The position numbers and the translations under genes were made by a program. The notes below the pieces were generated by a model that saw only the letters and a list, made by a program, of their open reading frames with translations, had not been told where the DNA came from and did no database searches. A stretch of DNA of 64,000 bases from Anas platyrhynchos (taxonomy: Eukaryota; Chordata; Aves; Anseriformes; Anatidae). The stretch covers positions 33,389,001-33,453,000 of the forward strand of contig NC_092591.1 in NCBI RefSeq assembly GCF_047663525.1, written 5' to 3'. Positions 57,559-59,088 of this stretch are shown piece after piece (the stretch's first letter is position 1; every line of letters starts with the position of its first letter).

Positions 57559-59088
57559 GTGCGAGCTCTCTGCAGCAGGGCATATCTCCTCAAGAAACTG
57601 GCTGTTCTTGGCTTGGACTGGCGCACGCTTCGTTGGGTTAGAAACTGGCTGGATAGCCGGGCCCAAAGAGTTGTGGTAAATGGAGCCAAGTCCAGTTGGA
57701 GGCCAGTCACTAGTGGCGTCCCCCAGGGCTCAGTGCTGGGGCCGGTCCTCTTTAACATCTTCATCAATGATCTGGATGACGGCATTGAGTGCACCCTCAG
57801 TAAGTTTGCAGATGACACCAAGCTAGGTGCGTGTGTCGATCTGCTCGAGGGTAGGAAGGCTCTGCAGGAGGATCTGGATAGGCTGCACCGATGGGCTGAG
57901 GTCAACTGTATGAAGTTCAACAAGGCCAAGTGCCGGGTCCTGCACCTGGGGCGCAATAACCCCAAGCAGAACTACAGGCTGGGAGAGGAATGGTTGGAGA
58001 GCTGCCAGGCAGAGAAGGACCTGGGAGTGATGGTGGACAGTCAGCTGAATATGAGCCAGCAGTGTGCTCAGGTGGCCAAGAAGGCCACCATACAGCTAAA
58101 TAAAAACATCATACGATGGGTGAGCAATTGGCTAACGGGCAGGGCCCAAAGGGTTATGGTAAATGGGGCTGCGTCAGGCTGGCGGGCGGTCACCAGTGGG
58201 GTCCCTCAAGGCTCCATTTTAGGGCCGGTACTTTTCAATATTTTTATAAACGATCTGGATGTAGGAATAGAAGGCATTTTGAGCAAGTTTGCTGATGACA
58301 CCAAACTTGGAGGAGTTGTGGACTCGAATGAGGGTGGAAAGGCCTTGCAGAGGGATCTGGATAGGTTGGAGAGCTGGGCGATCGCCAACCGCATGAAGTT
58401 CAATAAGAGCAAGTGCCGGGTCCTGCACCTGGGACGGGGAAACCCTGGCTGCACGTACAGACTGGGCGATGAGACGCTGGAGAGCAGCCTAGAAGAGAGG
58501 GATCTGGGGGTCGTGGTAGACAGCAAGTTGAATATGAGCCAGCAGTGTGCCCTGGCAGCCAGGAGGGCCAACCGTGTCCTGGGGTGCATCAAGCACGGCA
58601 TTGCTAGTAGGTCAAGGGAGGTGATTGTCCCGCTCTACTCTGCGCTGGTGCGGCCTCACCTCGAGTACTGTGTGCAGTTCTGGGCACCACAGTATAAAAA
58701 GGACATGAAACTGTTGGAGAGTGTCCAGAGGAGGGCTACGAAGATGGTGAAAGGCCTGGAGGGGAAGACGTACGAGGAACGGCTGAGGGCACTGGGCCTG
58801 TTCAGCCTGGAGAAGAGGAGGCTGAGGGGAGACCTCATCGCAGTCTACAACTTCCTCGTAAGGGGGTGTCGAGAGGCAGGAGACCTTTTCTCCATTAACA
58901 CCAGCGACAGGACCCGCGGGAATGGAGTTAAGCTGAGGCAGGGGAAGTTTAGGCTGGACATCAGGAAGGGGTTCTTCACAGAGAGAGTGGTTGCACACTG
59001 GAACAGGCTCCCCAGGGAAGTGGTCACTGCACCGAGCCTGACTGAATTTAAGAAGAGATTGGACTGTGCACTTAGTCACATGGTCTGA
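57559..59088 (+). pseudogene. CR1 ORF2 fragment with duplicated RT core
   Basis: 509-codon open frame. Intact CR1 ORF2 carries an N-terminal endonuclease and one RT (known). Here unit 1 (residues 25-176) and unit 2 (residues 186-337) each contain RW.(7)RAQRV, TSGVPQGS.LGPVLFNIF, the catalytic FADDTKLG (83-90 and 244-251), MKFNK.KCRVLHLGR and DLGV.VDS.LNMSQQCA. By hand they agree at 113 of 152 positions without gaps. A 9-residue filler (TIQLNKNII) joins them. After unit 2 the normal C-terminal part follows once: VIVPLYSALVRPHLEYCVQF, FWAPQYKKDM, VQRRATKMVKGLE, FSLEKRRLRGDL, SDRTRGNG, HWNRLPREVV. It lacks the endonuclease, so it is not autonomous. The first 7 or so residues may be flanking DNA. 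Confidence 0.85.

What the first reader, a model, noticed from the sequence alone, without database searches (positions are those of the whole stretch)
57631..58572. CR1 reading frame with two consecutive reverse-transcriptase cores
Residues 25-176 and 186-337 of one uninterrupted frame are both complete RT palm segments with FADDTKLG, offset by 161 codons. They are only about 74% identical by hand count, so this is not a recent duplication of one element. Unit 1 looks like one CR1 subfamily and unit 2 plus the single C terminus like another. No leftover 3' end of unit 1 follows the octamers, which argues against simple nesting. Template switching between two CR1 RNAs during target-primed reverse transcription, or an older recombinant lineage, fits better. 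The 9-residue filler at about 58087-58113 marks the junction.
Basis: partly seen in the sequence, partly recalled or inferred. Interest (0 to 1): 0.75.

Follow-up and report, generated by a model that had tools for sequence, protein, structure and literature searches.

The report
Two fused young duck CR1 fragments
Pieces of two different, recently active CR1 "jumping genes" of ducks sit joined head to tail in one open reading frame, most likely a one-off copying or repair accident rather than a new kind of element.

Summary
The frame is real: 57541-59088 (+), 515 codons, no stop, with two CR1 reverse-transcriptase segments offset by 483 bases, 73% identical in DNA and 113 of 152 in protein.

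Corrections. Neither segment is a complete palm: RVT_1 is matched only at about positions 87-194 of 205. The "filler" is unit 2's own sequence: a 690-residue Anas zonorhyncha protein contains it and matches unit 2 at 332 of 333 residues, so the junction is at 58085-58087 with nothing inserted. Unit 1 belongs to a second duck family (165 of 167 residues).

So a 3'-truncated copy of one young family is fused to a 5'-truncated copy of another; local duplication is out. No second copy of the junction appears among the 120 listed proteins of a junction search. Template jumping during insertion fits (about 0.45); insertion with target deletion, or a later deletion joining two copies, fits nearly as well (about 0.40), since no target-site duplication was found. 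Misassembly and genome-wide copy number could not be tested. Known kind of event, clean example.

The parts
57541..59088 (+). stop-to-stop open frame of 515 codons spanning both units
   Evidence: about the first 13-15 codons are flank, not CR1 (alignment)
57586..58087 (+). unit 1: piece of a young duck CR1 (family 1), truncated at both ends; 5' edge uncertain by a few bases (about 57580-57586)
   Evidence: residues 16-182 identical at 165 of 167 positions to each of P0176, P0177, P0178 and at 164 of 167 to P0180
58085..58087 (+). junction; 1 to 3 bases could come from either unit
   Evidence: unit 1 family continues KKA-NGIL, unit 2 family reads KMS-TIQLN; window reads KKA-TIQLN.
58088..59185 (+). 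unit 2: 5'-truncated young duck CR1 (family 2) with its own C terminus, stop, 3' UTR and octamers
   Evidence: residues 183-515 identical at 332 of 333 positions to P0091; octamers
   Evidence: TIQLNKNII is in P0091 and P0059, the two of 203 fetched proteins that contain TIQLN
59110..59185 (+). 3' UTR end with a possible hairpin and octamer array (ATTCTATG)
   Evidence: hairpin -18.3 kcal/mol, not exceptional (z -1.14; 27 of 200 shuffles fold as well)

Best explanation
One-off chimera of two young duck CR1 families made in a single insertion. Shown: unit 1 is a both-ends-truncated piece of one duck CR1 family, unit 2 a 5'-truncated piece of another with a normal 3' end, joined directly at 58085-58087. 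Inferred: target-primed reverse transcription began at the 3' end of a family-2 RNA, copied about 1.1 kb towards its 5' end, jumped internally (or onto a broken RNA end) to a family-1 RNA at the KKA codons, copied about 0.5 kb more and stopped; the cDNA was then joined to the target. The shared reading frame is chance (1 in 3) plus youth, not selection. That this is one direct join of two young copies at one locus, by whatever route: about 0.85. That template jumping made it: 0.45.
For: Both units are almost undecayed: 2 of 167 and 1 of 333 residue differences from duck proteins, as expected if both were made at one time. No family-1 remnant 3' of the octamers. Direct join, at most 3 shared bases. 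Published passages: CR1-J and CR1-X both expanded in ducks within the last 2 Myr (PMC8665684, passages), so two donor RNAs could coexist; R2 RT and human L1 ORF2p jump between templates in vitro (PMC8857657, abstract and outline; PMC10830420, passages); LINE/snRNA chimeras with an internally 3'-truncated acceptor (U5) are attributed to template switching (PMC4476161, passages); CR1 template switching was proposed for a passerine SINE (PMC5729268, passages).
Against: No flush target-site duplication of 4 or more bases around the whole chimera; PMC4476161 treats lack of one as a hint of two separate events. Equal youth also fits two separate recent insertions. The acceptor must have been entered internally or been a broken RNA. 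Assembly error not excluded.
Confidence: 0.45

Rival explanations
1. Two separate recent insertions. Either a family-2 CR1 inserted into a family-1 copy and the target deletion removed that copy's 3' part, or two neighbouring same-strand copies were later joined by a deletion from the middle of one into the other.
For: No target-site duplication at either candidate 5' edge and at most 3 bases shared at the join, as in end-joining. PMC2912911 (passages) reports that 5'-truncated L1 insertions are often coupled with target-site deletions and microhomology. Young CR1 copies are abundant in ducks (PMC8665684; PMC7787181; passages).
Against: Needs a rare same-strand landing or neighbouring pair plus a deletion that ends flush after, or starts before, an intact octamer tail. 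No direct evidence of an earlier complete family-1 copy.
Confidence: 0.4
2. Misassembly: a gap-closing or repeat-resolution error joined two CR1 copies.
For: Gaps of the older short-read duck assembly were enriched in CR1-J2_Pass (PMC7787181, passages), and PMC8665684 says CR1-J and CR1-X dominate those gaps (passage). No reads could be examined.
Against: The join shares at most 3 bases, which is not how overlap- or k-mer-based joins usually fail (inference). The window has no N.
Confidence: 0.1
3. A propagating chimeric CR1 lineage with two RT segments.
For: The frame is open through both units.
Against: The junction search (2084 hits among 2142 candidates, best 120 listed) has no listed protein above 55% identity at 90% or more coverage; a second copy should score above the list's floor of about 143 bits, since P0059, with only half of the stretch, scored 163. 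Both partial RTs lack the N-terminal part of the domain, so any mobilisation would be in trans. But annotated proteins are a poor census of CR1 copies and no duck genome could be searched.
Confidence: 0.04
4. Local tandem duplication of one element.
For: Same strand, constant 483-base offset.
Against: dN 0.18, dS 1.63 between the units (Nei-Gojobori; dS near saturation; the YN00 estimate failed), changes by codon position 33/24/69, and each unit is about 99% identical to a different duck protein family.
Confidence: 0.01

Closest known systems
CR1 non-LTR retrotransposons of waterfowl (CR1-J and CR1-X of PMC8665684, seen in passages)
   Same: RT domain of CR1 type, 5' truncation, octamer 3' end; both units about 99% identical to Anas proteins
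   Different: two partial RT segments from two families in one frame; which unit is CR1-J and which CR1-X was not tested (no consensus library here)
LINE chimeras attributed to template switching (U6/L1, U5/L1; one incompletely characterised U6/CR1-like copy in turkey; PMC4476161, passages)
   Same: a piece of another RNA, sometimes 3'-truncated, placed 5' of a 5'-truncated LINE on the same strand
   Different: the partner here is another LINE family, and no target-site duplication was found
PittSINE/TguSINE1 of passerines (PMC5729268, passages)
   Same: template switching by CR1 RT during target-primed reverse transcription is the proposed origin
   Different: tRNA partner, and a family that multiplied; here no second copy was found among listed proteins
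P0059, an Anas zonorhyncha CR1 protein with an internal 43-residue direct duplication (2 of 43 residues differ)
   Same: a 3'-truncated CR1 stretch followed directly by an overlapping 5'-truncated one
   Different: both copies from one family; DNA not seen, so it could be a gene-model artefact

Membership tests
CR1 non-LTR retrotransposon (each unit) | CR1-type RT sequence | tested here: met
   RVT_1 E 6.4e-33; 332 of 333 and 165 of 167 residues identical to duck proteins
CR1 non-LTR retrotransposon (each unit) | octamer-type 3' end | tested here: met
   unit 2 only: ATTCTATG x 3.4 at 59159-59185; unit 1 has no 3' end
CR1 non-LTR retrotransposon (each unit) | complete RT and endonuclease (autonomous copy) | tested here: not met
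   RVT_1 positions 87-194 of 205 only and no other Pfam family: dead fragments of the family, not autonomous elements
LINE chimera made by template switching | two unrelated or non-allelic templates joined on one strand, 3' partner a 5'-truncated LINE | tested here: met
LINE chimera made by template switching | one target-site duplication around the whole chimera | tested here: not met
   none of 4 or more bases flush at 57570-57595 / 59180-59201. Weak test: whether CR1 reliably leaves one was not established here, so I do not file it firmly under this family.
propagating chimeric CR1 family | same junction at several loci | tested here: inconclusive
   no second copy among the 120 proteins listed; the genome search tool did not complete

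The most novel reading that the evidence does not exclude
A single CR1 insertion copied RNAs of two co-active families, and the jump and both stops reflect a preferred pause site: the 5' ends of unit 1 (at LLKKL) and unit 2 (at T of STIQL) lie only 18 bases apart in element coordinates (alignment), as if CR1 RT tends to stop or jump there in both families.
Probability: 0.1. Interest if true: 0.5.

Novelty: new member of a known kind. Interest (0 to 1): 0.27.

Why it matters
If it is one insertion event, it is a clean case of LINE-to-LINE template jumping between two concurrently active families in a bird, and gives a junction that can be genotyped across ducks. It also warns that neighbouring young CR1 copies can give long open frames that look like new genes. 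It does not by itself show a new mechanism.

Tried and rejected
Local duplication: rejected. Filler or non-templated bases at the junction: rejected, they are unit 2's sequence. Spliced chimeric RNA: rejected by codon reasoning: unit 1's family continues with an Asn codon (AAY) at the join, so no GT donor, and unit 2's family has no AG just before it (inference; family DNA not seen). Selection on the fused frame: not needed; with an assumed transition bias the frame expects about 1 stop at 2% divergence and 2.6 at 5% (P of none 0.35 and 0.07). Age difference between units: none detected (2 of 167 versus 1 of 333, Fisher p 0.26; in the script one cell was entered as 331 instead of 332).

Target-site duplication: none flush (in its control, 1637 of 2000 random position sets gave a match of 4 or more, so short matches would have meant little anyway). 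One search did give a 9-base match, 58045 and 59229, but it is not flush with any edge.

Relatives as DNA: viral contigs with P0091 and P0178 and genome contigs with P0091 gave 9, 17 and 31 pattern matches, none a relative. These collections hold no bird genomes by description, so the result says nothing about ducks. Two-core proteins of other species: 42 of the 203 fetched proteins have two cores by the motif [FYL]ADD[TSA] (43 of 203 with a looser motif). The search ranks such proteins first and they are gene models (stork, crane, turtle and others), so they were not counted as evidence; P0087, P0095 and P0083 were looked at closely and none shares this junction.

Solved-structure search gave only distant RT matches (best: LINE-1 ORF2p, E 0.00017). 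No structure was predicted.

Full report
What is there. The plus strand of the window carries a 515-codon frame, 57541-59088, without a stop. Two stretches in it, 57631-58087 and 58114-58570, align at 335 of 458 positions (73%, E 4e-85), spaced by 483 bases. Their translations agree at 113 of 152 residues. Both carry FADDTKLG and match Pfam RVT_1 (E 6.4e-33 for the frame), but only at positions 87-194 and 90-193 of 205. So each is the C-terminal part of an RT domain, not a complete palm. The frame ends 70 bases before a CR1-type octamer array, ATTCTATG x 3.4 at 59159-59185.

Two families, both from ducks. A search of the protein collection with the whole frame listed an Anas zonorhyncha protein, P0091 (690 residues, 350 member sequences). 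A second search restricted to unit 1 listed Anas platyrhynchos/Anas proteins P0176, P0177 and P0178, identical to residues 16-182 at 165 of 167 positions each, and P0180 (23 members) at 164 of 167. The stork and crane proteins that fill most of both lists match unit 1 at about 80-87% and unit 2 at about 73-76%. The window is therefore very probably from Anas or a close relative; the organism itself is not given.

The junction. Family 1 continues KKA-NGIL, family 2 reads KMS-TIQLN, and the window reads KKA-TIQLN. Unit 1 is truncated at both ends (57586-58087, 5' edge uncertain by a few bases); unit 2 is 5'-truncated and has a normal 3' end. CR1 proteins give no tblastn match 3' of 59085, and no exact octamer lies beyond the array, so unit 1's 3' part is missing.

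Not a duplication, not selected. Between the units dN is 0.18 and dS 1.63 by Nei-Gojobori (the second method failed), with 33, 24 and 69 changes at codon positions 1, 2 and 3: two lineages that diverged while coding. The open frame needs no selection: both copies are young, and a neutral frame of this make-up expects about one stop at 2% divergence. Keeping the frame at the join is a one-in-three chance (inference).

How it arose. Published passages say that CR1-J and CR1-X both expanded in ducks within the last 2 million years (PMC8665684), which fits two young donor families; which unit is which was not tested. Template jumping by LINE RTs is documented in vitro (PMC8857657, abstract; PMC10830420, passages) and inferred for LINE/snRNA chimeras, including internally entered, 3'-truncated acceptors (PMC4476161, passages). 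That gives this structure in one step. Against it, no flush target-site duplication of 4 or more bases exists around the chimera or around unit 2. Insertion of unit 2 into a unit 1 copy with target deletion, or a later deletion joining two neighbouring copies, would also leave none; 5'-truncated L1 insertions are reported to go with target deletions and microhomology (PMC2912911, passages). I put template jumping at 0.45 and the two-step routes at 0.40. The two 5' truncation points lie 18 bases apart in element coordinates, which may hint at a pause site or be coincidence; it was noticed after the fact.

One copy or many. A junction-centred search (residues 138-228) gave 2084 hits among 2142 candidates. 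In the 120 listed, 7 cover 90% or more of the stretch, at 38-55% identity; the duck proteins match one side only or in one register (P0059 96% over 52%, P0176-178 and P0180 73% over 77%). No second copy is listed. This census is weak, because most CR1 copies are not annotated as proteins and only the best 120 are shown. The genome search tool did not answer in five tries, and the contig collections scanned hold no birds by description (no relative).

Assembly. The window has no N. Young CR1 families were enriched in gaps of an older duck assembly (PMC7787181, passages; PMC8665684, passage), so a wrong join is conceivable; a join with at most 3 shared bases is not typical of one (inference). 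No reads were available. About 0.1.

Print. Searches for CR1 with template switching, retrotransposon and chimeric (7 papers) and with tandem and bird (2 papers) listed no paper whose title or abstract start describes a CR1-CR1 chimera. Of these I saw passages of PMC5729268 and PMC4476161 only; the rest I saw as listings. The library lacks most subscription journals.

Verdict. It is a new example of a known kind of event.

Noticed in passing
31158-31241 (+), with an octamer-like end at 31366: A short, decayed CR1 3' remnant: 28 residues at 57-61% identity to CR1 proteins by tblastn and one exact ATTCTATG at 31366; sequence read.
   Followed up: partly
P0059 (Anas zonorhyncha, 378 aa): A duck CR1 protein of unit 2's family with a 43-residue internal direct duplication whose copies differ at 2 residues; may be the same kind of event within one family, or a gene-model artefact.
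   Followed up: partly
9322-10629, both strands: Several long overlapping open frames on both strands (up to 327 codons) next to G-rich tandem repeats at 9916-9951 and 10185-10226; possibly a GC-rich island. Not examined.
   Followed up: no
62694-62756: A 31-base unit repeated twice at 90% match.
   Followed up: no
fetched proteins P0083, P0087, P0095, P0149 and others: 42 of 203 fetched CR1 proteins carry two RT cores. They are gene models ranked high because they have two cores, so splicing by the annotation cannot be told from real fusions.
   Followed up: partly
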